This document shows, piece by piece, positions 12,408-33,845 of a stretch of 64,000 nucleotides of DNA. The first letter of the stretch is position 1. Each line of letters starts with the position of its first letter. Source of the stretch: Paramacrobiotus metropolitanus. Its lineage: Eukaryota > Tardigrada > Eutardigrada > Parachela > Macrobiotidae. Both the position numbers and the translations under genes were made by a program. The stretch covers positions 434,001-498,000 of the forward strand of contig NW_026570223.1 of assembly GCF_019649055.1 (NCBI RefSeq), read 5' to 3'. The notes below the pieces were generated by a model. That model saw nothing but the letters and a program-made list of their open reading frames with translations, had not been told where the DNA came from and ran no database searches.

Positions 12408-13539
12408 TTACAATCTTTGATACCAGCGTTTGGCAACAACCTGAGCGACTTTGAATGTCTTAACTAATTCGTCACCATCGACATGCCAAATATCCACAAT
12501 GGTCTTATTGTATCCCGGCATCGTGACGTCCATGGTCAGATCCGTGCTCGCTTGTTCGGTATATTTGAACTGCAAAAACGTAAACTGATGCCAGATTTTT
12601 CTATAGTATAAAACTGCGCTAGTGGCTGATATCCCCATATTACTCGTCGGCAATAAGACAAAATATTAGTGCGCGGGACGCAAATGCTCGTATTTAAAAA
12701 CCACGTAATCTTTACGCAGAACACAAGATGATGCTCCGATCCACGCAAATTAATCCATCAAACGAAATACATAGTATAGCTATTCCCTAACTTGTAATCC
12801 AGATTATTGAAATTTACGTTAATAAATAAAGTAACTTATTTGAGAAGTGATATTGTTGATCGTATCCAGTTTTGCACATAAATAAAAAAAATTATAGCAT
12901 GAAAGTGCCAAAACTTCCACATATTTACCGTGAATTCAGTGCCGTTGTAAGAAGATTTGCCCTCTTCGCCCAACTTAAAACATATATGCTTCTTATAGTT
13001 GACTTCCGGAGCGGCAATTTTATGGTGGAATTTATCGCCTTCTTTCCATAGCTCGTGAGTGGTTGCCGGATCGTGGACGTCGTGATTCGGCAGACCTAAC
13101 ATTACGGGAAAATGTCATTTGCCGATGGTGTTCTTCAATACGAAAGGCGAAAGCACGAATGTTTTTCCATTACGAAAACACGAATATAATGTTCGAACAT
13201 TGTTTCGCCATACCTAAAGCTTTCATGAAATCTTCAAAATGCTCCTGTCGTCCCGTTGATTTCCATTTTCCAATCCATAGATGCTCGTTGTCCTTGGCGA
13301 TGGTGGCCGGACTGGGGTGATCCTCCGCCGAAACCGCGGCGATAATCACTATACACAGAACAGCGGTTATTTATTCGTCATGGAGAAATTACTACAATGG
13401 TGATATTTTGTGTACAACGATGTTCTCCATAATTGCAAATACTTTAGAAAAGTAACGCCTCTACGCAGTACTGGGCTATTAGCAACAGAATAATGGAGGA
13501 TAAAAAATTACCGAGTGCGAAAATGAAAGCTGCGTTCAT
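12408..13539 (-). CDS. SAHS: SAHS-A, secretory abundant heat-soluble protein
   Basis: Secreted lipocalin/FABP-like barrel protein of the tardigrade SAHS family; family members stay soluble on heating and are tied to anhydrobiosis. Proposed CDS: complement(join(12408..12569,12929..13095,13214..13348,13512..13539)), 163 aa. Exon 1 gives MNAAFIFAL and exon 2 completes the signal peptide (VIIAAVSA). Then come LWIGKWKSTGRQEHFEDF, HELWKEGDKFHHKIAAPE, FKLGEEGKSSYNGTEF and WHVDGDELVKTFKV with the terminal AKRWYQRL. Intron phases are 1, 1, 0, as in all six paralogues. It is the most downstream member and ends at the Arg-Leu after the conserved AKRW. The segment ASTDLTMDVTMPGYNKTIVD is more divergent than in SAHS-B or SAHS-F. 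Confidence 0.9.
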
Positions 13540-13595
13540 TGTGAACGATAAAAAGTTAAATTCCGGGTAATTAATCCAAAGGGTTGCTTAGTATT

Positions 13596-13602
13596 TTTTA
13601 TA
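13596..13602 (-). promoter_or_regulatory. Candidate TATA box of SAHS-A
   Basis: TATAAAA on the minus strand about 57 nt upstream of the SAHS-A ATG, in a position matching the clearer TATA boxes of SAHS-C, F and G. The surrounding DNA is AT-rich, so a chance match is possible. Confidence 0.45.
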
Positions 13603-14162
13603 ATTATTACGAACACCCCTGTGCGTATCAAAAGACTGTAATATGGGATACTGCGTATAAATTTTTCTGCTTTGCCGGCTACCATATTATTTATTACAAG
13701 CATTTGGCCCAGGAACCCGTGACCTTTGCTCTGCTCTAATCAGATCATCCGATCGGCTGTAAGATATATTTTACCCTAGTTATTTGAGTTCCTAAAGTTT
13801 ACAAGCATTGACAACTACAAAAAATTCTATTTCCGCGGCGTGTTTTAAACCGGCCAGTTCATTTTATTTTTACCGACGCATTTCTGGTTTATCGCTTCTT
13901 CTGATCGTCTGAGCTGTCTAACGTGTACTCGTATCCCCGTAATAAGTACATTTGCACACGAAAAGGATTTCTAATATCTAGATGTATGTTATGGTACGAG
14001 AACTGATACATAATTAACGCAAAGTAAACAAGCGGTTATGGTCATGCATTTCACGCACACTGGTAGTCCACAATTACGATAAAACTTATCAGCAGCTTTC
14101 TGACATTAGGAGCGTTGTATAATTAAAATTAGCTCGTTATTATTTTAATAACATGGAACAAA

Positions 14163-15868
14163 TCAGGTATTGGATGGCTTAGACGTGGCTTTCGCAAACC
14201 ATCGCTTGGCTTCCACGTTGTCCACTTTGTAAGTTTTAACGAGCTGCTCGCCTTCCACATGGTAGGTGTCATGCACTACTTTGTCCTTAGCCGGCACTTT
14301 CACTTCCACGTGCAAATCTTTGTTTTCCTCCGTGTACTTATACTGCAAACAAAAAAAAAGATAAAATTAGTGATGTAAATTAAGCATCCGTATGTAAAGT
14401 ACATATTTATTGCACTTGTACAACATGAAAATGATCTAAGTTGCAGATTGCCTTTTTGTATTCAACTACTCTACGGTATTTTGGAAACATCGCTGTTTGC
14501 ACAAAGTATGTCTTTACAGGTGCCCCGAAAAAAGGTTGAACCCTGATTTATTTAAGTTAGTTCGATTATGGCGGTTTTGTAAATTTCTTGTGCTGTACTT
14601 ACTACTTAATTATGGGATACAGAACAACTAGAATATGGCTTAAGGATAAGATTAATACGTAATTTTAAATTTTGTCATTAATAACAATGCAATCTTTGGA
14701 TGCTGAATCACTGACTATCCCTACACGCGCTAGCTTCCGGTGGTTGTCAACGAATTTTGATATATACCTTGAATTCGGTGTTGTTCCACGTAAGGGTTCC
14801 TTCCTCTCCTAGTTTGAATTCCACAAATTTCTTGAAGTCTTTTTCTGTGACCGCAATGCCGTGATGGAAATGGTCATCTTCCTTCCAGAATTTATGGTAT
14901 ACCTTGTTGTCGGCTCCGTAATGCGCCAAACCTTTGAATACGCTTTGATGTCGTGATTTAACAGACACAATATATGATATACATATAATTATACCTATAT
15001 ATAACTACGAGTATATTTTTTTATAGTGTACAATACCGTAGCGTACAATAGTTTTTTATAGTGTACAATATTGTACGGTATGTACCAAGATGTTTGATAA
15101 AGTTTTCAAAATTTTCATGGCGACCGTCAATGGATTCCCATCTGCCGATCCACGGATGCGCAGGATCAGCAGCAATATCTTTGGGATCGTTTTGCCCATG
15201 GCCAATAACACACGCAATCAGGCCTGCAAAGTTGAATAAATAAGAACGGCAACGTGCACCTTCAAATGATCCGCGATTTTGCATACTTTATTGGTGAAAA
15301 GCGAAGTTCCTAATGGAAATCTGATCCATCTGTATATACGTACTCGTAAATCCAATGGCACAGCACAAAACCCCACAATGAATACTTCTTAGACCGCAAC
15401 TACAGATACAAAATATCCTCGCACATTTATGCCAGAAGATCGAATAAAATTAATACTGGTATCGAAAACAGTTTTATTAATGTAAGAAATGTAACATGAT
15501 CGCATCTTGCGCTCTTACCAGCCTTCATTTTATGCACGCTGCGCACAACTTTGCGTCTCAACAACTCAATTATTTATATATACGTACTTAACATACATAA
15601 TATTACATAAATAAAGCAAAAAGTAAAAAAATAAAGAAAATAAAATTAATTTTTATTCGGCTTTATTATAGGTGTATGGTGTACATACTTCGAACAATAA
15701 TCACCATTGTATGCCTGTACCTTGAGTTAACAAGTTTCCCGCTAAAGAAACATATACTCACTGCCCTTTGTAGCTTCTGTATTATGCAAAAATAAGCGTA
15801 ATTTCAAAACCCTTCACATCGTATAACAAGCAAGCCTTACCGAATATTATAGCGAAAGTACCGTACAT
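14163..15868 (-). CDS. SAHS: SAHS-B, secretory abundant heat-soluble protein
   Basis: Proposed CDS: complement(join(14163..14342,14768..14931,15086..15223,15841..15868)), 169 aa. The start exon encodes MYGTFAIIF, then exon 2 gives LIACVIGHGQ, so the signal peptide spans intron 1. Family signatures: HPWIGRWESIDGRHENFENF, KVYHKFWKEDDHFHHGIAV, EFKLGEEGTLTWNNTEFK, YKYTEENKDLHVEVKVP, YHVEGEQLVKTYKV and AKRWFAKATSKPS. Intron phases are 1, 1, 0. Intron 1 is long (about 620 bp). No clear TATA box was found at the expected distance. The product should be secreted and bind small hydrophobic ligands or stabilise extracellular material during drying; the function is taken from the family. Confidence 0.92.
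15010..15078 (+). repeat. Short tandem repeat in SAHS-B intron 2
   Basis: The unit ttttttatagtgtacaata, followed by ccgta-type spacers, occurs twice side by side. It has no coding content. Confidence 0.7.
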
Positions 15869-17587
15869 CTTCGATCTGAATCAGGGTGGTATTGTATCAA
15901 ATATCAATAAATGTTCAATCCGTGGATGTGCTACAAAGACTTTTCTGAAATATAAATCCTTCTACAGCTAGAGTAGTACTCGTAGGGATTCACGGCAGTC
16001 GTATATACGTTTTTAAAATTGTGCCGGGTAATTCACAAGGTAACTCTATGATCTTTTCTCCCCGTAATCAAATGTTACATCGTCTAAAAAAGCAAGACAG
16101 AGACCAAATTCAACTTAAGGTTTAAAGGTCAGTCGTGCATAAATTACCAGTTAAGTACATATGGCTAAAGATTTTTCACGGAAGTGCATTCTTGTAAATA
16201 TTCCATTTTTCATGTACTGTTAATGAAATTGCTTTACCTTATATATATGCGAAAATCAGGAGTGTTAAATAATAGTAAGCAACTTTTGTTAATTTTTATT
16301 TATTTGTTCTCACATGCGTTATTTTGTATCGTATATCCTTATTATAAATATTAAAGATGTACAAAAATTTGTGCGTAGACGAATTGCATGTGTTAACTGC
16401 TTTGACCTGCCGTTGCGCATTTTTTACGAAATATTCGCAGTATATGAACGGGATTTAAGAATGTTGATTAATGAGGTGCCATTATTAAAATGGACTAGGT
16501 TAACCGCTAAGTCCTCTGCATCTGTATTACCTATATGACATAGTCCATCTGGAATTACTGATTGGCATTCTTAGTGCTAATATCTTAAAGTTATAAATGT
16601 AGGTAATAGTGAGATATAATAATATACAGTACGTGCAAATTGCAATTAGAGTATACTACTCTAATGGTACATAAGTACAATACATAATTGGCTGTTCCAG
16701 GATCCGGATTGTGTTCCAGTTATTTGAAAATATATAAGCACTTGCGCAAACCGTTGAAAAATTACAATCAGTACTTCTACCTCTTATAAAACTCTTACAA
16801 ATAGTTAGTAGCGGTACAATCACTTGTACAAAAACGGAATGATTTAGGAAAGTTTTCTCTTGCCTGATATTTTTGCGTACAGAGTATAACTGCGTTTTAG
16901 AGTATCTTCAAATAGCAGGAATTCAGATAACGTTGCCACTTCTCTGTTCAAAAACATTAACCGCTTAAATAGAATTTTGACGAAATTGCATTTGAGTTGT
17001 TTGATTTGATTTGTGATGATATATTTTGCGAGTAGCCAAGCCCGTAAACGTGCACTCTCACATATTCTTATTCTAAATTTGTAAATTTGATTGTTGTATC
17101 CCAAATTTTTGCACATAAAAAATTTACTTTGGAGAAGACGCAATGTTATTTAGAATTTCGCACATCATCATAAGTATTTCTGACCAACTACATGTATGAA
17201 TACACATAAAAATGCCTTTCTACAATAATTTCACAAGTTATTCTCATCACAAAAGAAAAGCCGGAACCTATGTATTTTGCCCTTCTTGTGGTGACTGGCG
17301 AGATTGCAGTAAGCGTTAAGGCAGTAACCATTAGCGTAGCTTCTCATAATTTCCTTGTTATTTTATTTTTGAAACAATATTTCAATTCCGTTGTTCTTTG
17401 GGATTCATATACCGTCACAGATTTGTGGCTCTGGACAAAAAAATTGTTCTCTGTTTTTAAATCATCGGACTGGCGTTATTCTCATATAACTTTACACATA
17501 ATTCCAGCAAAACATCAAAACAAATTTACAGAGCTAGTACGAGAAAGAAATGCATAGTTGAGAAACCGAGACTGTGCCATAATGGAT
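15869..17587. other. Intergenic, SAHS-B to SAHS-C
   Basis: AT-rich spacer holding the SAHS-B promoter and the SAHS-C 3' UTR. I see no additional exon with SAHS motifs and no other recognisable gene. Confidence 0.5.
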
Positions 17588-19140
17588 TTAGGCATTGGCT
17601 GGTTTGGAAACGGCCTTCTTGAACCATTTCTTGGCCTTGACATCGCCGACGGTGTAGGATTTGACCAGCTCTTCGCCTTCCACATGGTACACGTCGTGGA
17701 TGGTGACGCCCTTGGCGGGGATTTTAACGTCGACATGCAGATCCTTGTCTTTCTCAGAGTAAGTAATCTGCAATATTATAGCCCATGTTTAAAAGCCTGC
17801 TGCTTGGTACTGTCTTTATAGTAGGAATTCAGATGTATTAAATTAGCTTTATAACCGATTATTCGGTCATGTTATGGTAATTTATCAACGTTAATCCATC
17901 GTAAAATGCTAGAGGAACCAGTATATGCAAAATAATGTAGAACTCTAAACTACAGCAAACTGTTTTTCAGAGCTTTACACGCTGAGCTGTATACCTGGGG
18001 TTACTGTACAAAATAAGCGCATTACTTAACATGTTTTTGCTTACTTTGAATTCGGTGTTGTTGAAGGTCAGACTCTGCTCTTCGCCGAACTTGAACTGGA
18101 CGAACTTCTTCAGCTGCTTGTCAGGAACAGCCAGACCGTGATGGAAGTGATCTCCCTCTTTCCAGAGTTTATGGTAGACTTTTTGGTTTCCGCCATATTG
18201 AGGAGCATCTAATCAACAGCAAGGAAAATGGATAACAAATCAATGTTATAATTGTACTGCTTCAGCATAACCCGGCAAAATAACAGGTTAAAGGAAGTAT
18301 AAACGATTCAAATTAAAATTAATAATAGTACTATTTCCCAATACTGCTTTTGGAATCGTTAATCGCCAATCATAAGATTGTTAATTAACGTATCAACATC
18401 ATTACGTACAATATCTGCATGTGACTATGCATTGGCATATAATGAGTACGCAGTACGCAGCAGTACCAGTACATAACAGTACGCAGAAACATAAAAGGTC
18501 ACGCTTACTGTATTATGCTAAGTAAGTTTAAGAGCAGTCAAATAAAATGAATTATAGTTAAAAAATATATAAATATGTTAAAAATATCTGATTATAATGG
18601 TGGATGTATTTTCAAATATTGTCATGATACAGTTATCCTGAATGCCATACCGAGTTTGGCAACGAGGTTGTCGAAGTTCTCCTGACGTCCGTCGATCGAT
18701 TCCCATTTGCCGATCCATGGGTGCTCTGGATCCGGGGCAATTTCTTTGGGGTCGTTGCCGTGCGCTTCATGGTGGTCAGCGACAACGAAGGCCGCCAAAC
18801 CTGCAACACAGCACAACACATTAAGACACGCGCTACAACTAACTTCAGATATCGTAAAATTCTGAGACACAATGATTTAATGAAATATTATCGTAAAATC
18901 TCGGCTGATCAATTCTAAAAAAACTATTATTAAATTACTGGTATTAAAAAAATAGCAAACGAAACAATATTTCTGCAACCAAAAATGGTCTAAGATATAT
19001 AGATCCGGCTATAGGTCTTTAAATTATAAAAAAAATTTATCGTTGGAAAAATGTACGAAATGTCAAAGTCAATATAAGGAGTGGAGCAGTATGTAATACA
19101 AGATAGACTCACCCAGGATTATAACAGCGAGGTAAGACAT
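17588..19140 (-). CDS. SAHS: SAHS-C, secretory abundant heat-soluble protein
   Basis: Proposed CDS: complement(join(17588..17767,18045..18208,18651..18800,19113..19140)), 173 aa. The start exon encodes MSYLAVIIL; exon 2 continues GLAAFVVADHHEAHGNDP. Core motifs: HPWIGKWESIDGRQENFDN, QKVYHKLWKEGDHFHHGLAV, FNNTEFK, ITYSEKDKDLHVDVKIP, YHVEGEELVKSYTVGDV and KAKKWFKKAVSKPANA. The exons are noticeably more GC-rich and codon-biased (many -C codons) than those of its neighbours, consistent with high expression. A TATA box lies 90 nt upstream of the ATG. Intron phases are 1, 1, 0. The His-rich start of the mature protein (DHHEAHG) is specific to this copy. Confidence 0.93.
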
Positions 19141-19229
19141 TGTGCACAGCGAAGGAACGTCAAAGAAAACTAGACAACCTTTTACAAGACTATCACAGCG
19201 GTAATTTGACGGCGGGACAGCAGCCGGTC

Positions 19230-19236
19230 TTTTATA
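19230..19236 (-). promoter_or_regulatory. TATA box of SAHS-C
   Basis: CTATAAAAGACCGG on the minus strand, about 90 nt upstream of the start codon in a GC-richer context (GGCTGCTGTCCCGCC follows). This leaves room for a short 5' UTR. Confidence 0.65.
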
Positions 19237-21210
19237 GGTAAAAAATTTAGGCTAACCTGTCTAGATGGTGCAGATCATGCGTTCCACTTCGGGTGTCCTT
19301 TCGCACCAGGGCTTATCGAGCAGCGGAAATCGTGAGAGGAATTTGGCGAAAACATCCATTTTTTGCAAATCAATCGAGGCAACCGATCCAAGGTTGAACT
19401 GCAGCAGAAGCAATGATAAGCCCCGCTCCAGCAATTGTAGCATGGCCACCATGGTCGATCATCACGGAAAAATGCGTGATCACAAATCGCGATTGTCGGG
19501 GTGCAAAGGACACTATCGTTGTAAATAAACAAGAAGAAAAAGAATAATCAAGGCTCAACGCCCTCCTGCCAAACTTAAATAATTTTTTCGTACTTTTCGT
19601 TTTGTTCTTGCCGGAAAATCAGCATTATTATTATCATAATTGTAATATTATCAGCAGAACGAAGATTACCGCTTCTAAGAGCCTGGTGTAAAGCTGCGTA
19701 GGAGAGCGATGTTTCTGTAGTCTATAGGGTTACCTGATTATGCTTTTTATACAATTTTGCATTTTCTGTTTTTAAAAAAACCGCAAGATTTATTGGAAGT
19801 AAAATTGACCCTTTCGAGGCCGGTTTTGTCTAAGTAAAAGATTCCAAAAAGTGCTTGTGATGTGTACGTTTATAACATGGTTTGCAAGAGTACTCGTATC
19901 AATGGGGAAAAGGTAAACGATTTAATGTACTCCACTTTTTAAACTGATTGCTAACCAGCTTACTATAGCTGCAAATCCCAGCACGGCAGTAATAAATTTG
20001 AAAATACTGTACTCGTACCCTCGTTTTGAAACGTATGTTTTTTAAGCTTGTCTGATATCAAGTGACCAGAGTAGTTTTAATTTGCGAGTAAGTGCTGAAT
20101 GGAGAAAGTTTTCGAGTGAAAAATTTACGCAGCCCTAGCTACGCAACGACTAAATTTGAGGAAAATTGTAAATAATTTAAATCTTTACTTTAATCAAATT
20201 ATGTACATTGGCGAGCTTCGCTCAATAAAAACTTTTTTTCTCAAATTATTGTGCTTGGGAATTTACAACGTAAGATAACTTGAGTAAGTTTGTCTGTAGC
20301 ATCGTGTGTAGTGTCTAGTAAAAAATGTTTGTATCGTCTTTTCCTAACCTTGGACTGAAATATGCGTACTCTAGCTGTGGAAGTTGGAAATATTATAGGC
20401 CGGCTGGAATAGCGTTACGCCGTACGCGTAGTTTTTATCAGGCGGTCCCATCGAACGAGAAGCTTATTTTGAACTTCCGGGATAGCTAATGTATATCCAC
20501 AGCTATCACTGAAATACGGATGAGAAAACATTTCCTGACTTCCAAAGTTTCATCGGATTACGCACGAGTCCTCCTTGTACAAGCATAGACAGCGAGCAAA
20601 TAACATTGCTAATATAGCGGATAATTACTCCAACCTGCTTCTCGTATATGGAACTGCATTATGCCCAAAAAAAAAGAACCATTAAGAACAAATAGGCCTT
20701 CAGCATTAAAATTGACAAACTGTGCCGTCTGTGCGCTTAATTTAATTACATTAAAACTCATATATGCTGAATGCCTAACTAAAAGACGATGAATATACAA
20801 ACTGTACAAACCCAGCTACGTGTTACTTTTTTACAATTTTAGTTAGCGTAAGTGATATGCGAAATGGGTTTACTACGTTCACACACTTTTTAATTGCTAG
20901 AATTTGTGTTCAAATGGAGAATTATTGTTTTGAATTGTGTATTGTTCGTTTTTCCTCCTCTTCTGTTTTTGAACGCAAAAAAATGTCGGCCGGAAAATGA
21001 AAAAGAATAAAAAATATTTATATTTATAAATACATTTGCAGTTGTTACAGCACGGCAAAAACGTGTAACGAGGACTACCGCAGATTATTGTTTCACTGGC
21101 TGCTTGTGCAGTTGGTACATGTACATACAGTACAATCATACAAGTAACAAAAAATAATATGAATTAACAACTGCAAATATGCAGATTTGTCTTGCCCAGC
21201 TGTTGTACAA
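19237..21210. other. Intergenic, SAHS-C to SAHS-D
   Basis: Contains the upstream region of SAHS-C and downstream region of SAHS-D. Short frames on both strands at 19260-19560 overlap each other and show no domain. Nothing else was recognised. Confidence 0.5.
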
Positions 21211-22350
21211 TTAAGGAGATTTCACTGGACTTGGCGATGTTCTCCGGAACCACCGCTTGGCTTCCCATGTGCCTCTTGTAAATGTTTTCACCAGTTCATC
21301 GCCCACCACATGATACTTGTCATGAAATTTGCTATTTTTCTTTGGTACATTCACTGTAGCGTGTAAATCACCATTTTCCTCGGTATATGTAAACTGCAAC
21401 GAAACACAGCATTTATAATTATGTATACTAAAATATACATACAGATAGCTCATTATTCCATTTGCAAATTAATTAAACCGATAACCAACAGATCTGTAAA
21501 CTTCTCAGTCCTTGCGGGATTAATTATGCTTCTGATGGGATACTTCTGATGATATATATTTCAACGAATCCCTGCATAAGAATTCGAAAGCGGCTATGGT
21601 TCTGCTGCCTTAGTGAGGATAAAAGAACTACAAGATTAATTTGTGTATACCCGATATTCTGTGCCGTTAACATTGAGTGTTGCTTCTTGTCCCAACGTAA
21701 ACTGGAATACGGCTTGAAAATTCCGCTCGGGAACAGCCACCGCATGATGAAACTGGCCACCTTCCTTCCACAGATGCCGGTACACTCTCACATTGCCGCC
21801 TTCGATATAGTGCGGAGCATCTAGCGTAACCATGCGGAATTCATAATTAATTCATTACACAAGGCCCGGCTTGCGCGTGGATAAAAAACAACGTACTTAT
21901 AATTATCGCTAGGGCTGTGCAAGTACATGTATAAGAAAAAAATAAAACAAAATCGACAGCAGCCATTACACCTACGTACATATCTGTAGTACATACTCAG
22001 GTCCTTCAACTGGTCGTCGCTGGTGGTAAATCGTCCATCCACTGATTCCCAGCTGCCAATCCACAAATGATCAGGATCCGGTTGGATGGCCTTGGGAATA
22101 GTCTGTCCTTCAATATGGGCACAACAGCACACTGTTAACCCTGTACAAAAAAAACCAATTTACTAGGTTAATTCTGAATTTCTCAGTTACAGACGCGTCT
22201 GCAAAATCTGTTGCAAGGAGATAAATGCGCTGAAAGGGACGTAAACATGAATTGCATAAAATGCCACTGGCGACCGGAAGACATTATGTGAAGTACCAAG
22301 AAAACACAGCCAACGTTACCTATGAGAATAGCCTTTCTCGCAGAGGACAT
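21211..22350 (-). CDS. SAHS: SAHS-D, divergent SAHS protein
   Basis: Proposed CDS: complement(join(21211..21393,21651..21820,21997..22140,22320..22350)), 175 aa. The start exon encodes MSSARKAILI and exon 2 GLTVCCCAHIEGQ. Motifs: DHLWIGSWESVDGRFTT, RVYRHLWKEGGQFHHAVAV, FQFTLGQEATLNVNGTEYR, FTYTEENGDLHATVNVP, YHVVGDELVKTF and EAKRWFRRTSPSPVKSP. The frame is intact with intron phases 1, 1, 0. With SAHS-E it forms a divergent pair: both have SWES instead of KWES/RWES, GQ in place of GEE, a W/R-T step after KT, and a WFRR end. Three consecutive Cys in the signal-peptide region are unusual. Confidence 0.9.
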
Positions 22351-23243: not shown

Positions 23244-24485
23244 TTATGGCCGGTTCACAGAGTCCATACTGTCATTGGCAGCGTGTCCATTGTTTTCTAA
23301 GTGACTGTGATCATCGTGTCTTGGCGGTGACTCCGTTCTCCTGAACCACCGTCTAGCCTGTAGTGTCGTCCGGGTATACGTCTTCAGCAGCTCGTCTCCA
23401 TGTACTTCAAAAACATCCGTGAATGTAATGTTGCGGTTAGGGACTTGTAAGGCTCCATGGAGGATCTTGTCGTTTTCGTTGTAGACGTACTGCATACACA
23501 CGGCAATATTAAACTCCGACACTTATTATGTGCAGCGAAACAAAAAATTAGTAGCATCAATGCCTAACTCGAGCTTCACAACCAAGTTAAGAGTTTAACC
23601 TTTCTTTCGCCAATTACGAACTAATTTTGCATGATTACCTGATAAGTAATACCGTCAATGGTTACCGTTCCTGGTTGTCCTAATGCAAATCTGAACACCT
23701 CTCGCACGTTATCATCAGGAACAAGTAGACCGCTGCAGAAATACTCCTCTTCTTTCCAAAATTCCCGGTAGGTTTTTACATTGCTCCCAGCATCGGTAAT
23801 GCGCGGGTCGGTCACTGTAATATGCATCTAGTAAGGTTTGTGAGACCGTTTTAACTTACCTTTGCGTCGCCATGTACGATGTGCAATAATTACAGTCAAT
23901 ACACAATATTAATTAATGATTTACTTGTACACATACAACAATATTACATCGCCAGTGCATCGCCCAGATAATACAATGTCATATAAAATTAAGAAAACGT
24001 ACGCACACAACATAAAATTATTGTGTTATTGAAAATATTTTCCAAATTTTCGGGTGTTTACTGTTGACGTTAGGATTGGTGTCGATATTCTGGTACCGCC
24101 CATCGATGGATTCCCAGCTGCCGATCCATGGATGGTTCGGATCTAACTGAGGCTCTCTCGGGTACTGACACTCGGTTCCCAACACACACGATACTCCTGG
24201 AACATTTGGCAGTTTACGGATTATGGGGTCTAATTTCAATGCATTTTTATCAGGTTTTGGGTACCTTTCACCGCTTTTTAAGGAAAAATATCGCAGAAAA
24301 AAAAAACTTAAGCGTGGCATTTCTTAGTTTGCATTCGTGTACATTACGTATTTTGAAATACAATGTATTAACGGTCAGTTTTTCCAGACATAGATTTGAA
24401 GGATTCTCCAAACCAATACAAGCTGAAAATCATATTGGCACGGAAAATTACCTAAGGCGGAACAAAGAATGACAATAATCATCAT
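23244..24485 (-). CDS. SAHS: SAHS-E, divergent SAHS protein with C-terminal tail
   Basis: Proposed CDS: complement(join(23244..23489,23639..23814,24062..24196,24452..24485)), 196 aa, the longest of the array. The start exon encodes MMIIVILCSAL (the second Met is an alternative). The signal peptide is followed by a mature start rich in Cys, Pro and Arg. Motifs: HPWIGSWESIDGRYQNID, KTYREFWKEEEYFCSGLLV, FRFALGQPGTVTIDGITYQ, FEVHGDELLKTYTRTTLQAR and RWFRRTESPP. It departs from the family by losing the HYHH/FHH block (YFCSG here), by lacking the TEE turn, and by adding a tail of about 25 residues (RHDDHSHLENNGHAAN...) rich in His, Asp and Asn. Intron phases 1, 1, 0 are kept. It is probably functional but specialised. 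Confidence 0.86.
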
Positions 24486-25648
24486 CTAACAAATGGTAAA
24501 AAAATTAGCCAAAAAACTGGACCGTAAAGTAAAGGAAACTAAAAAAAATTACTTGAAATAGCTGTATTCTAAGTTCTTAATTGTGGAAAGCACCAAGGAA
24601 GTTATTTCGGCTGGCGTTTCTGCAGTTACTTAATGACAGAACCGTTAACTTGGCTTTCCTATCAGATACAGACGACTTTTCCTTTGCGGTTTCACTTACT
24701 AATAATCCCTAGATCTTTTACCATAATACGAGTATATACCTAATCTCCTATCGTATTACTGCTGGCAGCGCCGTTCAAGTAAGCATGACCAACATTAGAT
24801 TATGGGAGATCATAGTTGTACCACGCAAAACGGTAGCATCCAACAGGATTACAATTAAAACCAAATTTGGAGCTATCGCATGTAGGCGAGCGATTAAGGC
24901 GTTGCACAATTCGCAAAACTCATTTGTTTTGCAATATTTCAGTAAAATTTTAACGGTATCGTCGTAATACAGTAGAAACCACAACTTTATTAAAAAGCTT
25001 TACACCACGTCAGGAAGATCAAAGCAAAATCTTAGTTAGTTCCATTACTTATTTTTGGCAAGTTGTGAAATTATTCCAGCACGATGCAGTAAAACGAAAA
25101 CCTTTATGAAGGCGTCTACATTATAGCACTGCGCATTTAAGAAAGGTCAAGGTCATCCGCTTGCGGTAGATGCCTTAATGGCTGAGCGTTACAGCATCAA
25201 AGTCCACTTCATAGGCATTGGTAAATCGATAATGACTGTGCAAATTACTTTTCAAGTGTACCAGTACATTAATTACAGTAAACTCTCCTGACCAGACCGA
25301 CAGGCATATCAAGCAACAAGATCGTAACCGTAATACATCAAGATCGTGTTTGTTGACTTTTCGCTAAATAACAGATACGAGAGCCGGCATGTAATATGTA
25401 TTCAACTTAAGAGTCTTATAAAAAGCATCAAATCTTACAAAAAGCATCAAATCTCACAAGCATTGCTGCGCATGTATTCATTACGTGTACCGACAAAAAG
25501 ACATGCGTGAATTATTCAAATCGTTGTAAAGAATCAGCAGCATGTTTGCGTGAAATGCTTTGACGTAATATTGTACAGAGAAACAAACACAGCAACTATA
25601 ATTACACCATCTAATTATGTTCAGTATGTTGTACCAAAGGCCACAAAT
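24486..25648. other. Intergenic, SAHS-E to SAHS-F; left duplication boundary
   Basis: No gene recognised. From about 25295 the sequence (ccagaccgac..., caagatcgtaacc..., gctaaataa) becomes homologous to 31905 onward. This is the left edge of the duplicated block that includes SAHS-F. Confidence 0.6.
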
Positions 25649-27020
25649 TTATGCGCTGGCTGCCGTGGTAGCCTGGTCGTGGCTTTTGCGCTTGTACCAC
25701 CGTTTGGCCTGCACATCGCCGACTTTGTACGTCTTGACCAGCTCATCGCCCTCCACATGGTATAAGTCGGTGATGACCTTATTATGTGTCAGCAAGTTAA
25801 TTTCCGCATGGAGATCTTTGCCCTCTTCGGTATATTTGTACTGTGCAAAAGAAACCCGTATTAATTAAATATGCGATGACTCTGAAGGCTCTTGTAATTA
25901 CATTATATTGGCCGCACTGTTATTCAAATAGCCAACTATTATGAAAATTATTAAAATTATTATGAAGATTATTATCGTAAAATTATAAAGGTTGTGAAAT
26001 TTTCATAATTATAAAAATTATTCTAAGACAAATTGCCTTTTATTTCTCGCTGACCTTATGGACACATCGGTTCACATACAAACTGCTTACCTTGAAATTC
26101 GTGTTGTTGAAGCTGCCGGTGCCCTCCTCGCCCAGTTTAAACTCAACGTCCAATTTGTAGTTCTTTTCCGGAACTTTGATACGATGATGATAGTGATCAC
26201 CTTCTTTCCACAGTTTATGCCAGACTTTGTGCTCGGCCGTGTAATGGGCAAAACCTAAACATAATTCAGACATGGAAAATTCTTAGTTTATTTAAAGAAC
26301 TCAATTTTTACAGTAAAGTATTGGAGATGTAGTAATTTTCACTAAATTCAGAAACCATTGTTTCCTAAACCCGCAGTACAATACACCAGGAAGTTCACTG
26401 TGAGCAGATACTTGTACATACACACCTCAAATTCTCAGAGAAAAATCGTTTGATGCAAATTACAAAAAAAAACCAGAAGTAGAAGTATGTAACAATTTAC
26501 ACCGCAAACGCATTGTGCATACTGCCACAATAGTGTTTTTGTCCTTGCAGTATGTGCGTTTATTAATTATGAGATGCCGTTACTGGTGAATTTCATTGTG
26601 CTACAGTACGGTATATGCAAAAAACTTACCTAAGGCGTTAATAAAGTTAGCAAAGTTTTCCTGGCGTCCATCGATGGATTCCCATTTGCCAATCCACGGA
26701 TGGTCGGCATCGGCAGCAATCTCATTTTGCTCCTTATGTTCGCCTTCAGCGGGTCGGCCCGACACCGCTGCCACCAGTGCTGCCAACCAATACAACGGTT
26801 AAAATGATTAAAATTTAATTTGAACTTTATAGTAATATTTTACGGCGCAAATTGATTGAGATTTAACCACCGCAAACGAAATATTAACTAATATAATTCT
26901 GGATGGAATAATTTGACGGAAATCGTACTAAGCATGACAAATTTGCAAATAATAATAATGTTAAAATGCATACTAAATAAATTGCGACATACCGATCAGA
27001 AGGAAGGCTTTAAAGGTCAT
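25649..27020 (-). CDS. SAHS: SAHS-F, secretory abundant heat-soluble protein
   Basis: Proposed CDS: complement(join(25649..25840,26091..26254,26630..26779,26993..27020)), 177 aa. The start exon encodes MTFKAFLLI; exon 2 gives ALVAAVSGRPAEGEHKEQNE, so cleavage is probably after VSG/A. Motifs: HPWIGKWESIDGRQENFANF, HKVWHKLWKEGDHYHHRIKV, EFKLGEEGTGSFNNTNFK, YKYTEEGKDLHAEINLL, YHVEGDELVKTYKVGDVQ and AKRWYKRKSHDQATTAASA. It is the closest match in the window to the canonical SAHS consensus. Its sister is SAHS-G. Intron phases are 1, 1, 0. A TATA box lies 66 nt upstream. Confidence 0.95.
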
Positions 27021-28261
27021 TTCCACAAAGACTGTTTAATATTTTGAAACAAATTAATTCTACGATCCGCAGCATTGCGGATGGGTTTTATACTGCGGAA
27101 GAAAGATGGCTGTTGCGTGATAAAATTCTCAACAACAAACAGTGCTGGGAATGGTGTTACGTGCACGTTGCAGCATATCTGTCGCTATGTGTATACAGTT
27201 CGGACTACGGATGACAGGGACTTATCGGTAGCTCTGCCATTATCAAAAGCAGATCAAGAAAAACAAAGTCGCTACCACGATGAACATTGCCGACAGTATT
27301 CGTTTGGTTATCGTGTATAGACTTTGGCAATGCTAAGATAATTTTTAATTTAAATTTAAAATTACAGTTTTATTACGAAGTATCTTTAACAAATTAATGC
27401 TTGAACTAGTGTAGTGACCTTCGATCGTGAGGGTTCTACTCGTGCGACGATAAACTGTTTTCATTGTCACCGGCAAGGTTTTTTCGAAAAGTGGCTGGTG
27501 AAAGAAAGTGCGGTAATATTAGGGATACTTGACCAGGTCGCGCTAAATGAATGAGCGTATATGATATATGGTATATTTGTATATGGTACTCGTATATTTA
27601 AAACGGTCTTCTACGGAAACTTTTGAGAAACGCTAGAATCAGAATGGTATCTGCATAAGGCTGTACGAGTACTCGAGTACCGGTTAGCAGAGTAAAAAAT
27701 TACTCGAATACCAGTTTCCTAACGCTTTTATAAGCATATGTGGTTGTTATTATTCGGTTACTCCTGGCATACTGCGGCAATACGAGTACTGTAACTAATT
27801 GATGTGAACGATGAATAATAATTATTTCCAGCCGATTATCTTAATTATTACCAGCCGATTCTCGTTGCGCCTGAAATCAGCCTTGGGCTTCGTGGGTGCA
27901 GGACCGGTGTGCACGCTGTAGGGCTATCGCCTGCCACCGTTTACTAGTTAGGCCAAATTCGTTTTCGCTAGCTCCTCATGTGTATCAGAAGTTATGATCC
28001 TGATAACGTTAGCGTTGCAAAAGTTAATTAATTAAGTTTCCAGTCCGTTTCCTTAAGTCCTTGGGGTTATAGTGGCTTCTTCTCTCTTCCTCATAACTCT
28101 TTGAATTATAGTGGACTTCGATTAATGTCCGCTGCACAGCGGTTACGGAATGCTTCATAAAAAGAATTAAAGCGGTACAGTGTACCAGTCTGTTGTTACA
28201 CGACCAAGGCGTGCCGGCAGTTAGGTTTAAGGCCACTTGGCGGCATTCTTTCTCTTGGAAC
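27021..28261. other. Divergent intergenic region, SAHS-F / LRR gene
   Basis: Upstream region of SAHS-F (minus) and of the LRR gene (plus). The first ~460 bp are shared with the upstream region of SAHS-G (33846-34300). Several short ORFs near 28024-28263 show no domain. Confidence 0.5.
27086..27092 (-). promoter_or_regulatory. TATA box of SAHS-F
   Basis: CCGCAGTATAAAACCC on the minus strand, 66 nt upstream of the ATG. The same box and flanking CTTCCGCAG are conserved upstream of SAHS-G, which supports a functional core promoter. Confidence 0.75.
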
Positions 28262-31200
28262 ATGATTGCATTTCAAATGCAGCTACCGAGAAAACTTTTA
28301 CATTTGTGGATAGTGGTGTGTTGTTGTGTAAGTGGGTGTTTTAGCGAGATCCCCAGCCTACCACGCTGCCCCCACTGGACCTGGACGCCTTGAAACCATG
28401 CATTTGCGACAACCCAAGCGTGCGCGATTTGCGCATTTCCTGTCCCGGCGTCAACCTGCCACAACTAGCCAGACGCCTGCAGTTGCTGCAGGGCACCCGC
28501 ATCGCCGTCTTCGAGGTGCGCGCCGGCGTCATCCCGGTGTGGGACGCCAACCTGGTCGGCAACATCACGCTGCTGGAGATGACGTTCGCTAACAGCCAAC
28601 TGCGCAACGTCGGCACGCGCATCCTCGACACCTCCGCCGACCAGGTCATCCGTCTGGCCCTTCCCTTTAACCTCCTGGAGGAGGTTCCGTCCGCGGTGGG
28701 GACCTTCCCGGCACTGCGCGGCCTCGATTTGTCGTATAACCGCATAGCCAGCGTTCCCCGCGACCTCCTGCGGGTTCTGGTGTCCCTCCAAGATGTTAAT
28801 TTAGCCGGCAACCTCCTGCCCAATGTCGACACCGGCGCCTTCGACGGTCTCTTCGCCCTGAGGGAGCTCAACCTGGGCGCAAACCTGCTGCAGCATATAC
28901 CCGCCTTGGGCTTCGGCTACCAGCACGGCTTGCAGGTCCTCAACGTCAGCGGCAACAATATCAGCGCAGTTTCCGGCACAGATTTGCAGAATTTGACAAA
29001 TCTCTACGTCCTGGACTTAAGCTTTAACCGCCTCGACAGCGTGGACAGTGGGGCGTTCCGCGCCAATCTGAAACTCATCTATTTATTCCTGGACCACAAC
29101 CATCTGACCTCCCTTCCCGCCGGCCTCTTCCCCATGGGAATGGCCGTGCAGAATCTGACTTTATCGCACAACCGCCTCACCACTTTCCCGTCCGACACCT
29201 GCCAGGGTCTCTCCAACTTGGTCGGCCTCGTCGTCAGCCACAACGCCCTGACGGAGGTTCCGGCGCGGCTGGTCACCAACAGCTCCCGCATCGCCGCCAT
29301 CGATTTCTCCTTCAACCCGGCACTGAACGTCATCCGCAGTCAGGCGCTGGACGGTCAAAAACACCTAAACAGTCTCTCCTTCAGTTTCTGCAACCTGACC
29401 ACCATCGAGGCCGGCGGTCTGGGCGACCTGCAAGAAGTGACGGCGTTGCACCTGGACAACAACAATCTATCGCAAATAAAGGCCGCCAGTCTGGGCTTCT
29501 TGCCGTCCGTGCAGCATCTGCAGTTGAGTTACAACAACATCTTCCAGCTGAAGCTGATGGAGATCTCAGGGTTGCTGGGCCTGATGTCGCTCAACCTGTC
29601 TCATAATTTTATCAGGACGGTGTCACCAGACGAGATGCCAAAATTACCCATGTTGATGACGTTGGATCTCAGTTATAACGGCCTGGTGGAGGTCATGCCC
29701 GGCAGTTTCAAAGATTACTTAGCGCTGCAGCGATTGTACCTCCACAACAACCTTCTCGAGGCGGTCAACTCCTCCACTTTCGGCAGCATGTACAGCCTCC
29801 TTGAAGTGGATCTCAGTAAGGCGACCATTGTTTTTTATATCTCTTTAACTTTCCTGGTATTATTTTTATTATTAGTGACCAGTGTCTCCAGTGTGTGTGT
29901 GTGTTTATTTATTAGCGACCAGTATATGGCTGTTCTTCTTATAGAAGTGCAGTATATAAGAAGTCTTATATAAGTACTACTTTATTAATTTGGAAGCAGC
30001 CGTGAGATAGTCAGTTCATCTGCGCAGATTTACATTAATTAAAATTATTGAATTTTGGACATTAAAATAACATCCAAAATCGTTATTCGAACGGCGTACG
30101 TGCATTTAGAACGTGCGTTCCGAGTGACCGCCTTTTCTCCGACTACCGCTATACTTAATCGTTATCTCAAAAGGCGGGTTCGCCGCTGACCTTTTTTCAT
30201 TTAATATTATTATACAGGTAAGAACAACATCACCAGTTTCCACCGGCTCACTGTTAGCAAACTGCGCAGTCTGCGCCGGCTCAATCTGGATAGCAACTTC
30301 ATCAGCGAATTGTGCCAGGTGCCGGTCAGCCTGGCGGTCTTATCCGCCCGCAACAACTCCATCGCCACCATCCAGGCCGCTAGCTTCCCCGTGGTGAGTG
30401 TTCTGACGACGCTGGACCTGTCCTTCAACAACATCAGCGAACTGGAACCGGGCGCTTTCCGCCGACTGGTTATCATTGAAACGGTGAAATTGCGCGGCAA
30501 CGCCCTGACGGCGGTGCCGAAGCGCGAGCTGCAGAACTACGTCATACTTCGGCAACTCGATTTGGGCCAGAACAGGATCGCCGGCGCCGATTACGACGCC
30601 TTCAGTGGACTGAAGCTGCGCATGCTATACCTGGACAACAACCAAGTACGTACATTATTCGTCGCACAGTCACTCATTTTAAATTACGTATATAACGTTG
30701 CTTTTAATTGTTAATATTTTTAAAAATAAATTTCATAATTTGTCAATATTTTGTTTAGTTAATTATTATTTTTCTAAATACTAACGCTGGTCGCTGTAGA
30801 TTGTCCGCTTTAACGAAAGCGCACTGAACGGTCTGGCGGAGCTGTCGGAACTTCGTCTGGACGGCAATCGCCTGCCGGCGTTGGACTCGCAACTCCTGCG
30901 CGGCCTGCAATCGGTGACGTCGGTAAACCTAAGCGGCAACGCCTTGAGCGACGTCACCGGCGACGTGTTCAACGACCTGTACTCGGTGCGGCATATCTCC
31001 TTGGCCGACAACGCCCTGGGTACCCTCCCGCGGCGGCTTTTCGACCGTAACAACTTTCTGGAAAGCGTGGACCTCAGCGGCAACCGCCTGCGCGTGTTCC
31101 CCACCCACCTTGAGGAGGCGGTAAACCACCTGACCTCCCTCAACGTCTCCCGCAACTTCCTGCAGGAGATCCAGCGCATCCCCGCTCTTCCGTGGCTCAC

Positions 31201-31936
31201 CGTCCTGGACTTATCGCGCAACGCCATCAAACAGTTAAACGTGCACGCCTTCTCCAAGATGCCGCGCCTGCAGCGCCTCCTACTGGACCGCAACCCTCTG
31301 GAGATCGTCGCCGATGCCGAACTGAACTCCGATCTGCAGCAACTCAGTCTGGACTACACGCTACTGCACGCGGTGCCCGTTTCCCTGTTGCTCTCTCTGG
31401 ACCAAGACAACAGCACCCTTTCCTTCCGCAACGTCAGCATCGTCTGCGACTGTCGGGCGGTGGGCCTGCAGGAGTACCTCCGGCGTCGGCGGCAGTCACA
31501 CAGCGACACCACGGCGCATCCCTTGGACGCGCTGTGTGCCGGGCCGGCCCCCGTCAACGCCACGCCAATCGTGGACGCCCCATTGGGGACCGAATGCGAG
31601 GCGTCGCGGCAGGCCATCGACAAGCTGCAGTACTCGAGGACGGTGTTAGATCTGCACGCGGTGCGAGCGGGTAGCGCGGTGATCCTCCAGTGGGACACGC
31701 TGGTGGCCGCCGACATCTTCAGCTTCGAGCTGAACGTGGAGTACGCCAACCGGTCGATGCACACGCCCATGACGCGGCTGCCATATTACATCAGCCAGTA
31801 CACCGTGTCCGACCTGTCACCCTCCACCACTTACAACGCCTGCGTCCAGAGTTTTGACTCCCGGGGGCGGATGGTCGGCTCGCCTGCCTGCAGACTGGTG
31901 CAGCTCGGCACACCAGGCCGACCAACCTCTATCTAG
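28262..31936 (+). CDS. Secreted leucine-rich-repeat protein with LRRCT and FN3 domains
   Basis: Extracellular LRR protein of the chaoptin/Toll-ectodomain style, about 1039 aa. Proposed exons: 28262..29815, 30218..30645, 30800..31936. Intron 1 is phase 1 (CTCA|GTAAGG, rejoining LDLSKNNIT) and intron 2 is phase 0 (NNQ|IVRFN). The signal peptide MIAFQMQLPRKLLHLWIVV starts at 28262. An N-terminal Cys cap (CICD...ISCPGVNL) follows, then roughly 30 LRRs of the LxxLxLxxNxL type, an LRRCT (CDCRAVGLQEYL...LCAG) near residue 875 and one FN3 domain (~944-1035). There is no transmembrane segment before the stop. The signal-peptide frame and the LRR frame differ by one base near 28345-28375: either one C is missing from a C run (CTGCCCCCACTGG) or there is a tiny intron. 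A polyadenylation signal AATAAA is at 31986. The last codons lie at a duplication boundary. Confidence 0.88.
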
Positions 31937-32652
31937 CAAGATCGTAACCATATCAGATCACAACATATTTGTTGACCTTTTGCTAAATAAAAGGGCGAAG
32001 AATAATGCCAAGATTAATAGTTTTGCAAGGCTACGTTTTGTGAAATAATTTAACAATAATCGACGATAAAACAGTTACGCAAATATCTATGCAAATACAA
32101 CGGGGAAACGCGATTTGTGTAATGGGTACGATCCCCGATCAGGACAGCATAGAGAAAATGTTTCTTTTGTAAACGCTGTGTTGTTCTGGTGCATAGTTTG
32201 TACTCGTACCATGATATTTATTAAAGGTTCTGAGACGTTACGCAACCGTGAATAGGTAAAACAGTTTGGGAGTAATTGGAGCATTTGAGCAACTGATTTT
32301 TTTGCTTGCACCTTTGGTGTATTATCATCGCTCAATAACGCATGCTAAACTGCCTGGACTTCTGAGTTCTGCCTGTCTAAATGTCATAAGAATAAGCTTC
32401 GTAAAGGTTTTCATGACTTCATCTCACCCGAAGTTTTTTCATAAACGTTTGCTCTGCCACCCGATGAACGGTGGCAACACTTCACAACAAACTGCATATT
32501 GTTAGTGAGTAACATATTGTTAGTAACATATTGTTAGTGAGTTTCAGTGAATCCACATCAGGTCTGTGTTAAATGCATTTACATAAATTGTACAGAAATA
32601 CAACCACAGCAGCGAAAATTACAGCAATTCATCTTCTAAAAAAATCAAACAC
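31937..32652. other. Intergenic, LRR gene to SAHS-G (convergent)
   Basis: LRR 3' UTR with AATAAA at 31986, and SAHS-G downstream sequence. A small tandem repeat (gtaacatattgtta) lies at about 32508-32545. No other gene. Confidence 0.5.
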
Positions 32653-33845
32653 TTAGGCACTGGCGGCCGTGGTAGCCTGGTCATGGCTCTTGCGCCTGTA
32701 CCATCGTTTGGCCTGCACATCGCCGGATTTGTACGTCTTGACCAGCTCATCACCATCCACGTGGTAGATGTCGTTGATGACCTTGTTATGTGTCAGCAAA
32801 TTTACTTCCACATGGAGATCTTTGCCCTCTTCGGTATACTTGTACTGTGCAAAATAAAAAGTAACTCACTACACGTACAAGGGTAAACACGCAGTAACGA
32901 TAGCATTTCACATTGTAATCAGACTATTATAAGCCATAAGGTATGCCTTCAACTGGTTCAACTGGTTGACCTTTAGGATATCACTTTCAGAACAGTCTTC
33001 TTACTTTGAAGTTGGTGTTGTTGAAGCTGCCGGTGCCCTCTTCGCCCAGTTTAAACTCAACATCTAGTTTGTAGTTCTTCTCTGGAACTTTGATGCGATG
33101 ATGATAATGGTCGCCTTCTTTCCACAGTTTGTGCCAAACTTTGTGCTCAGCCGTGTAATGGGCAAAACCTAAACGTGAATGACAATGAGATTATGGAATT
33201 TTTATTTTATTCAAAGATCCTAAATATATTAGGGATTACGAAAATTTAACGATTAAATTTTATAAATTTTGCAACACAGGTATTCTTACCACTGTGTCTC
33301 AAAAAGGTTTCGTTAAATGCGAGTACAAAAGCAAATTACTATATACAAAATTAGCTTAACCGCAAAATTAAATTGTGAATTTTGGCTCTTGTGACACTGC
33401 TTTAACTGAATCTGATGACGAAGCGGACTGAAAATCAATGCGCCTTATGCAAAGCAGACTTACCTAGAGCATTAACGAAATTTGCAAAATTCTCCTGGCG
33501 GCCATCGATGGATTCCCATTTGCCAAGCCAAGGATGGTCGGCATCAACTGCAATCTCATTCTGCTCCTTGTGCTCGGCATCACTAGCCGGTCGGGCCGAC
33601 ACCGCTGCCACAAGTGCTACCAAAACAGTCCAACGGTTATAAACTGGCAGAATTTTAGTATAAGATTTAGAATAATTACTTTTCAGTCCGATGTAAATCC
33701 GAGAATTTACCACCGCAAGCAAAAATTAATAAAAACTATGCAACTGAATCAAAGCTGTTAGACAAAATTAAATAATTATTTATTAATCTAATTAATACAG
33801 TGTATATTGTGACATACCGATCAGAAGGAAGGCTTTAATGATCAT
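32653..33845 (-). CDS. SAHS: SAHS-G, secretory abundant heat-soluble protein
   Basis: Proposed CDS: complement(join(32653..32844,33005..33168,33464..33616,33818..33845)), 178 aa. The start exon encodes MIIKAFLLI; exon 2 gives ALVAAVSARPASDAEHKEQN. Exon 3 encodes the same protein segment as SAHS-F (HKVWHKLWKEGDHYHHRIKV to NNTNFK). Exons 2 and 4 carry scattered substitutions (for example DLYHVEGDEL versus DIYHVDGDEL, KVGDV versus KSGDV, WYKRK versus WYRRK). Intron phases are 1, 1, 0. This is a recent duplicate of SAHS-F with an intact frame, and probably active because the TATA region is also kept. Confidence 0.95.

What the first reader, a model, noticed from the sequence alone, without database searches (positions are those of the whole stretch)
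12408..33845. Seven-gene tandem array of tardigrade SAHS genes
Seven same-strand genes with intact frames share the HPWIGKWES, WKEGDHYHH, LGEEG..NNT, VEGDELVKTYKV and AKRW blocks. SAHS proteins are established as eutardigrade-restricted secreted proteins linked to desiccation tolerance. The array shows different ages of duplication: F/G recent, D/E old and divergent. It gives a full local inventory for studying how this stress family expands.
Basis: partly seen in the sequence, partly recalled or inferred. Interest (0 to 1): 0.85.

Follow-up and report, generated by a model that had tools for sequence, protein, structure and literature searches.

The report
Tardigrade secreted fatty-acid-binding gene array
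Seven neighbouring tardigrade genes encode the secreted "SAHS" proteins linked to surviving drying, and their introns sit where those of ordinary fatty-acid-binding-protein genes in the same genome sit, which suggests that SAHS arose when such a gene gained an export signal.

Summary
Window 12408-33845 carries seven minus-strand genes (A-G). Each can be modelled as four GT-AG exons with an open frame and splice phases 1,1,0. All seven match solved RvSAHS1 (phmmer E 5e-21 to 4e-51), so they are SAHS. Array, family and clustering are ordinary: clusters are published for two other tardigrades, and 13 SAHS-like genes for the probable species, Paramacrobiotus metropolitanus.

What is new, as far as my searches go, is the gene anatomy. 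SAHS introns 2 and 3 match, in alignment column and phase, introns 1 and 2 of cytosolic fatty-acid-binding-protein (FABP) genes in the same genome. Four single-barrel SAHS-like genes elsewhere also keep FABP intron 3, which all seven array genes lack. The extra first intron separates a short signal-peptide exon. SAHS thus looks like an FABP gene that gained a signal-peptide exon. This conflicts with a 2012 statement that SAHS splice sites are not conserved. I also found a related gene encoding four barrels in one secreted chain.

Limits: no transcripts, one genome, one SAHS-like gene with a shifted intron, array monophyly unresolved. Membrane protection during drying is inferred from published relatives.

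The parts
12408..13539 (-). SAHS gene A, 163 aa; exons 13539-13512 (signal peptide start), 13348-13214, 13095-12929, 12569-12408
   Evidence: splice model; RvSAHS1 E 2.7e-39, 50% identity; Y141 position is W
14163..15868 (-). SAHS gene B, 169 aa; exons 15868-15841, 15223-15086, 14931-14768, 14342-14163
   Evidence: RvSAHS1 E 3.7e-44, 56% identity
17588..19140 (-). SAHS gene C, 173 aa; exons 19140-19113 (predicted signal exon, one of five candidates), 18800-18651, 18208-18045, 17767-17588
   Evidence: RvSAHS1 E 8.8e-43, 53% identity; R161 position is K
21211..22350 (-). SAHS gene D, 175 aa; exons 22350-22320, 22140-21997, 21820-21651, 21393-21211
   Evidence: RvSAHS1 E 1e-32, 43% identity
23244..24485 (-). 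SAHS gene E, 196 aa, most divergent, with a longer C-terminal tail; exons 24485-24452, 24196-24062, 23814-23639, 23489-23244
   Evidence: RvSAHS1 E 5e-21, 34% identity; PDB best hits SAHS1 and SAHS4
25649..27020 (-). SAHS gene F, 177 aa; exons 27020-26993, 26779-26630, 26254-26091, 25840-25649
   Evidence: RvSAHS1 E 4e-51, 65% identity; PDB search
32653..33845 (-). SAHS gene G, 178 aa; exons 33845-33818, 33616-33464, 33168-33005, 32844-32653
   Evidence: 92% identical to F, dS 0.60; RvSAHS1 E 5.3e-50

Best explanation
[quoted passage not shown] SHOWN in this genome, from splice-consensus models: the barrel-coding part keeps FABP introns 1 (phase 1) and 2 (phase 0) at the alignment columns of cytosolic FABP genes; single-barrel SAHS-like genes on other contigs also keep intron 3 (phase 0); all seven array genes lack intron 3; upstream of the barrel a further phase-1 intron separates a 28-34 nt exon that starts the signal peptide. 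INFERRED: the founding step was gain of that signal-peptide exon, which sent an FABP barrel out of the cell; the array then grew by local duplication of a copy that had lost the last intron. INFERRED from published work on relatives: the secreted barrels accumulate outside cells or in secretory compartments and, as water is lost, protect membranes. The predicted ligand site is RvSAHS1-like: Y117, D139 and K150 kept in 7 of 7 genes, an aromatic residue at 141 (arginine in 4 of 6 FABPs of this genome) in 7 of 7, and R161 kept in 6 of 7. The confidence given is for identity and FABP origin; I would give the membrane-protection step about 0.6.
For: Seven intact models, phases 1,1,0. RvSAHS1 matches 7 of 7; the profile of the seven finds SAHS1 1.6e-52, SAHS4 1.6e-31, then intestinal FABP 4.5e-9 in the PDB. 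Intron map, same result in three MAFFT modes: FABP intron 1 in one column in 9 of 11 single-barrel SAHS/SAHS-like genes (E one column off with phase 1; C4 is the exception) and 4 of 5 intron-bearing FABP models; intron 2 in 11 of 11 and 4 of 5; intron 3 in 0 of 7 array genes, 4 of 4 dispersed single-barrel genes and 4 of 5 FABPs (the fifth, C16, one column off). Chance by simple counting: three of three sites about 1e-7 with 390 sites, 1e-4 if one site in ten is usable; for the two introns of an array gene 4e-5 and 4e-3. Tree: SAHS on one side, FABP on the other, 100/99 with three long rows left out. N-terminal hydrophobic peak 2.54-3.41 in 10 of 10 single-barrel SAHS/SAHS-like genes with a modelled N-terminus, at most 1.54 in 6 of 6 FABPs (the first exons of C and C41 were themselves chosen partly for hydrophobicity). 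Ligand-site residues. Membrane protection by SAHS: PMC11127935 (passages). The same paper describes an N-terminal intron in some R. varieornatus SAHS genes (one passage), so a separate first coding exon is not confined to this genome.
Against: Yamaguchi 2012 (PMC3429414, passages and a figure legend seen) states that SAHS splice sites are not conserved among family members in R. varieornatus; I could not test that species. The dispersed gene on C4 has its intron 1 in phase 2, two columns away, and no exon 1 was found. FABP C107 has intron 1 seven columns away and lacks intron 2. C13 has the signal peptide in the same exon as the barrel start unless an alternative upstream exon is used. Array monophyly is not recovered (49% and 21% of 200 bootstrap trees) but not rejected either (AU p 0.30), so a single loss of intron 3 is not shown. 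With all 22 rows the SAHS/FABP separation is weaker (89/91). Pfam found no lipocalin/FABP match for any of the seven. The genes compared are related, so the counts are not independent events. There are no transcripts.
Confidence: 0.82

Rival explanations
1. The SAHS introns were inserted independently after the paralogues diverged, as Yamaguchi 2012 concluded, and coincide with FABP introns by chance or through shared insertion hot spots.
For: Published statement for R. varieornatus (PMC3429414, passages); C4 has a phase-2 intron near but not at the site.
Against: Introns coincide in column and phase across most of 11 single-barrel SAHS/SAHS-like genes and 4 of 5 intron-bearing FABP models, in three alignment modes; chance for three sites about 1e-7, or 1e-4 with strong hot spots, for two sites 4e-5 or 4e-3.
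Confidence: 0.04
2. The seven genes are SAHS and descend from FABP, but their main job is extracellular lipid carriage (storage, egg or moulting lipids), and protection during drying is secondary or limited to some copies.
For: RvSAHS1 ligand-site residues are largely kept; RvSAHS1 crystals held a putative fatty acid, and the RvSAHS4 authors suggest roles beyond dehydration (PMC5916119, passages); in H. dujardini 2 of 10 SAHS loci were differentially expressed in anhydrobiosis (PMC5531438, passage).
Against: The position of the FABP carboxylate arginine (I-FABP R106) is aromatic in 7 of 7; purified SAHS protect liposomes and bacteria from drying (PMC11127935); PMC5531438 also reports that H. 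dujardini CAHS and SAHS orthologues go from a median of 0.7 TPM to 1,916.8 TPM on induction.
Confidence: 0.3
3. Some of the seven are assembly duplicates or decaying copies rather than distinct working genes.
For: F and G are 92% identical in protein.
Against: F/G silent divergence is 0.60, and intron windows are about 37-65% identical, too far apart for alleles; dN/dS about 0.07 for F/G; all seven frames open.
Confidence: 0.02

Closest known systems
SAHS (secretory abundant heat soluble) proteins: RvSAHS1 (PDB 5xn9/5xna) and RvSAHS4 (5z4g); local clusters in Hypsibius dujardini and Ramazzottius varieornatus (PMC5531438, passage)
   Same: Sequence (34-65% identity to RvSAHS1), N-terminal signal, RvSAHS1-type ligand-site residues, local clustering
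   Different: Here splice sites are shared between paralogues and with FABP genes, contrary to the published statement for R. varieornatus
Cytosolic FABPs / intracellular lipid-binding proteins (four exons and three introns as the dominant layout; PMC3796463, passages)
   Same: Barrel sequence similarity and intron positions/phases 1 and 2; intron 3 in the dispersed relatives
   Different: Signal peptide, R106 position aromatic, last intron absent in the array
Nematode secreted FABPs (As-p18, LBP-1 to -4; recalled, from no call)
   Same: FABP barrels with a signal sequence, outside the cell
   Different: No special affinity seen: 'Fatty acid-binding protein homolog 3' (9dxi; that it is C. elegans LBP-3 is recalled) ranks far below intestinal FABP in the profile search (0.0068 against 4.5e-9)
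Nematode polyprotein allergens (ABA-1; PMC3079579, start of abstract in a listing)
   Same: Several small lipid-binding units in one chain, compared with the four-barrel gene on C14
   Different: A different fold (title); no cleavage shown for the C14 protein

Membership tests
SAHS | Sequence similarity to characterised SAHS proteins | tested here: met
   7 of 7, E 5e-21 to 4e-51 against RvSAHS1; PDB searches (F; profile; E)
SAHS | N-terminal secretory signal | tested here: met
   Hydrophobic 9-mer 2.74-3.41 in 7 of 7, with (-3,-1) cleavage candidates; simple heuristic, not SignalP, on predicted first exons
SAHS | RvSAHS1 ligand-site residues | tested here: met
   Y117, D139, K150 7 of 7; 141 aromatic 7 of 7 (Y in 5); R161 6 of 7, K in C; 163 Y/F 7 of 7
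SAHS | Heat solubility, abundance, secretion | not testable with these tools
   needs protein and expression data
SAHS | Occurs in a eutardigrade | tested here: inconclusive
   Assembly of 169.8 Mb in 533 contigs fits Paramacrobiotus sp. TYO, 170.48 Mb in 684 scaffolds (PMC8277472), and P. metropolitanus, 170 Mbp (PMC11191345); no name is given
FABP / iLBP | FABP barrel by sequence | tested here: met
   Profile of the seven finds intestinal FABP at 4.5e-9
FABP / iLBP | Match to Pfam's lipocalin/FABP models | tested here: not met
   No lipocalin/FABP match listed at E up to 1 for 7 of 7
FABP / iLBP | FABP intron positions and phases (1,0,0) | tested here: met
   Array: introns 1 and 2 in 7 of 7 (E one column off at intron 1), intron 3 absent in 7 of 7; dispersed C78, C41, C13 have all three, C4 with intron 1 shifted
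FABP / iLBP | Cytosolic, no signal peptide | tested here: not met
   so filed as SAHS derived from FABP, not as a cytosolic FABP
FABP / iLBP | R106/R126/Y128-type carboxylate motif | tested here: not met
   R106 position Y/F/W in 7 of 7; R126 kept 6 of 7; 128 Y/F 7 of 7

The most novel reading that the evidence does not exclude
A tardigrade-specific desiccation-protection family was made by exon gain: an ordinary cytosolic FABP gene acquired a tiny phase-1 signal-peptide exon, kept all three ancestral introns, and then radiated both as single barrels (the array, after losing the last intron) and as a secreted four-barrel chain that may be processed like a polyprotein. The intron map gives an ordered series of steps for the origin of SAHS.
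Probability: 0.6. Interest if true: 0.65.

Novelty: new member of a known kind. Interest (0 to 1): 0.5.

Why it matters
FABP has long been suspected as the sister of SAHS; a 2023 paper says the relationship had never been tested and then used FABPs as outgroup (PMC10799326, section 13). Shared intron positions and phases are evidence independent of short, fast-evolving protein sequences. They turn 'how did a drying-protection family arise' into testable steps (signal-exon gain, intron loss, duplication), and they run against a published statement about SAHS introns for at least one species. Ligand-site differences among the seven copies (A, C, E) name the paralogues to compare first.

Tried and rejected
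Rejected: F and G as alleles or assembly duplicates (dS 0.60). A recent conversion tract in exon 3: the exon 3 protein is identical in F and G, but nucleotide identity in 50-column windows inside it (88-92%) is like that of exon 4 (86-92%) and little above exon 2 (80-88%). Additional or decayed copies in the window: none convincing. A transposon between F and G: the open frames match leucine-rich repeats. Affinity to nematode secreted FABPs: not supported by ranking. No structure prediction was run: the proteins are spliced, and solved relatives exist.

Not resolved: array monophyly and the place of RvSAHS1/4. Rows left out: the tree dropped C14d1, C14d2 and FABP_C16 as long branches; C4 stayed untrimmed there because the trimming pattern missed it. 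The trees used mature-domain pieces of RvSAHS1, RvSAHS4 and rat I-FABP only. FABP-like loci C21 (L010) and C39 (L011) and the lipocalin hit C20 (L003) were fetched but not modelled; a weak hit on C82 (E 0.86) was not pursued. FABP C14 at 1066159 (L001) is intronless and carries no intron information. The four-barrel gene is counted apart from the 11 single-barrel genes. Of 104 window open frames listed, 10 were scanned against Pfam, besides the seven proteins.
Full report
WHAT IS THERE. The window is contig C3:434001-498000 of an unnamed assembly of 169.8 Mb in 533 contigs. Its size fits the published Paramacrobiotus sp. TYO assembly, 170,483,395 bp in 684 scaffolds (PMC8277472, passages), and the 170 Mbp genome reported for P. 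metropolitanus (PMC11191345, passages); the species name is an inference. On the minus strand between 33845 and 12408 lie seven genes, in order of transcription G, F, E, D, C, B, A. I modelled each by hand as four exons; 21 of 21 introns are GT-AG, all frames are open, and splice phases are 1, 1 and 0 in 7 of 7. The first exon is 28-34 nt and encodes the start of a hydrophobic N-terminus. Gene C's first exon was picked from five candidates.

IDENTITY. RvSAHS1 (PDB 5xn9) matches 7 of 7 with E from 4e-51 (F, 65% identical) to 5e-21 (E, 34%); the best of 2,600 shuffled sequences was 0.0012. A profile of the seven finds SAHS1 (1.6e-52), SAHS4 (1.6e-31) and then intestinal FABP (4.5e-9) in the PDB. 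Pfam listed no lipocalin/FABP match for any of the seven, as Yamaguchi 2012 reported for the first SAHS proteins. N-terminal hydrophobic peaks are 2.74-3.41 in the seven, against at most 1.54 in six cytosolic FABPs. They are SAHS.

AGES. F and G are the youngest pair (92% identical, dS 0.60, dN 0.04); of the other 44 pairs among 10 genes, dS is saturated for 40 and over 2 for 4. D and E group together (100/98) and join C and B. About 450 bases of 5' flank of F and G are still alignable at 68-94%, so the duplication carried the region upstream of the start. A plus-strand LRR gene with a weak fn3 match now lies between F and G.

THE REST OF THE FAMILY. Searches of the same assembly with F, E, C78, C41, a draft C13 protein, RvSAHS4, an FABP and Pfam's lipocalin model found no further array gene on C3, but SAHS-like genes on C78, C41, C13 and C4, a multi-barrel gene on C14, and cytosolic FABPs on C2, C67, C18, C107, C16 and C14 (intronless). 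C4, C16 and the multi-barrel gene came from weak hits (E 0.001-0.26) and were confirmed only by modelling the fetched DNA. That makes 12 SAHS-like loci; 13 are reported for P. metropolitanus (PMC13006486, passages). The tool warns that its counts are lower bounds for large families.

INTRON MAP. I aligned 7 array proteins, 4 dispersed single-barrel proteins, the first two barrels of the C14 gene and 6 FABPs in three MAFFT modes and marked every intron. FABP intron 1 (phase 1, as KAV^G in FABP C2 and NAL^G in SAHS F) falls in one column in 9 of 11 single-barrel SAHS/SAHS-like genes and 4 of 5 intron-bearing FABP models; E is one column off with phase 1, C4 two columns off with phase 2, FABP C107 seven columns off. 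FABP intron 2 (phase 0) is in one column in 11 of 11 and in 4 of 5 (C107 lacks it). FABP intron 3 (phase 0) is absent in 7 of 7 array genes, present in 4 of 4 dispersed single-barrel genes, and at that column in 4 of 5 FABPs (C16 one column off). The signal-peptide intron is phase 1 in 7 of 7 array genes, C78, C41 and the C14 gene; C13 may lack it (two possible starts) and C4's first exon was not found. Coincidence of three sites by chance is about 1e-7, or 1e-4 if only a tenth of sites can take an intron; for the two introns of an array gene the figures are 4e-5 and 4e-3. This is simple counting, and the genes are related. PMC3796463 (passages) gives four exons and three introns as the dominant FABP layout and says most invertebrate FABPs have matched intron positions; that vertebrate introns sit at these same residues is recalled, not checked.

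AGAINST PRINT. [quoted passage not shown] In this genome the opposite holds. Full-text searches for SAHS + intron + fatty acid binding + tardigrade (2 papers), SAHS + intron + tardigrade (8 papers) and SAHS + splice site + tardigrade (3 papers) list few candidates. Of the eight I looked for the intron passages in four: PMC3429414; PMC11127935, whose single sentence proposes an N-terminal intron in some R. varieornatus SAHS genes; PMC13006486, which compares exon and intron lengths; and PMC5531438, where the passages shown (12 of 19 places) give genome-wide figures. None of what I saw compares SAHS with FABP intron positions. In the other four (PMC11191345, PMC9224920, PMC8406910, PMC6889759) I did not look at intron passages. 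I therefore know of no earlier report within these searches, which miss most subscription journals.

TREE. With three long rows left out, all SAHS lie on one side and FABPs on the other at 100/99; with them in, 89/91. Array monophyly is neither recovered (49% and 21% of 200 bootstrap trees) nor rejected (AU p 0.30). So one loss of intron 3 is the simplest reading but not shown.

HOW IT LIKELY WORKS. Shown by sequence: RvSAHS1 ligand-site residues Y117, D139, K150 are kept in 7 of 7; position 141, arginine in 4 of 6 FABPs of this genome (H in C107, F in the poorly aligned C16), is Y, F or W in 7 of 7; R161 is kept in 6 of 7 and is K in C. RvSAHS4 differs at 117, 139 and 150 (PMC5916119, passages), so the array is RvSAHS1-like. 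Published: SAHS proteins protect liposomes and bacteria in drying, and an enzyme no better than BSA does (PMC11127935, passages); some genes of the expanded families, SAHS among those listed, rise in slowly dried Paramacrobiotus (PMC8277472, one passage that does not say which). Inferred: these seven are secreted barrels that shield membranes in drying animals, with copies differing in pocket chemistry.

A FOUR-BARREL RELATIVE. On C14:194763-191419 (minus) a 12-exon gene, all GT-AG, encodes 585 aa: a signal peptide and four barrels. An HMM from the other SAHS/FABP proteins finds d1 9e-16, d2 5e-6, d3 5e-16, d4 3e-6, against 0.43 for the best of 1000 shuffles; its best PDB hits are SAHS1 8.5e-7 and SAHS4 5e-5. 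Each of the four barrels is preceded by TLP or VLP, and the three joins carry RR or R-x-x-R just before it; basic residues also end ordinary FABP barrels, so cleavage is only a possibility. An intron of phase 1 stands near FABP intron 1 in 4 of 4 barrels, phase 0 at intron 2 in 3 of 4, phase 0 at intron 3 in 3 of 4; in the alignment intron 1 of the first two barrels is four columns off, and the last two were not aligned. One literature search (four papers listed, titles and abstract starts only) showed no FABP chain of this kind.

VERDICT. The array is an ordinary, well-supported member of a known family in a probably published genome. The added value is the intron evidence that SAHS is an FABP gene with a signal-peptide exon, and the multi-barrel relative.

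Noticed in passing
G000 C14:194763-191419 (minus), loci L012 and L015: 12-exon gene for a 585-aa secreted protein with four FABP/SAHS-like barrels in one chain, with FABP-type introns in the repeats; possible polyprotein.
   Followed up: partly
window 28345-31936 (+): Three long open frames with leucine-rich repeats and a weak fn3 match, an unrelated gene lying between SAHS F and G on the opposite strand.
   Followed up: partly
L002 (C2:3177300-3180300) and L011 (C39:883300-886300): The 3' half of the C2 FABP gene reappears nearly unchanged in translation on C39, with no 5' exons seen in the 3 kb fetched: a partial duplication or assembly effect (read by eye).
   Followed up: no
L001 (C14:1066159-1066572): Intronless FABP with an open frame, probably a retrocopy; intronless FABPs are reported in other invertebrates.
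   Followed up: no
L009 (C107) and L010 (C21): Pair of FABPs with intron 1 shifted about seven residues and, in the modelled C107 copy, no intron 2: a different layout from the FABPs that SAHS resembles (C21 read by eye only).
   Followed up: partly
window 3419-4039 (-), 38614-39657 (-), 49535-50662 (-), 46499-47134 (-): Flanking open frames match Forkhead, two rhodopsin-type 7TM receptors and a CCCH zinc finger.
   Followed up: no
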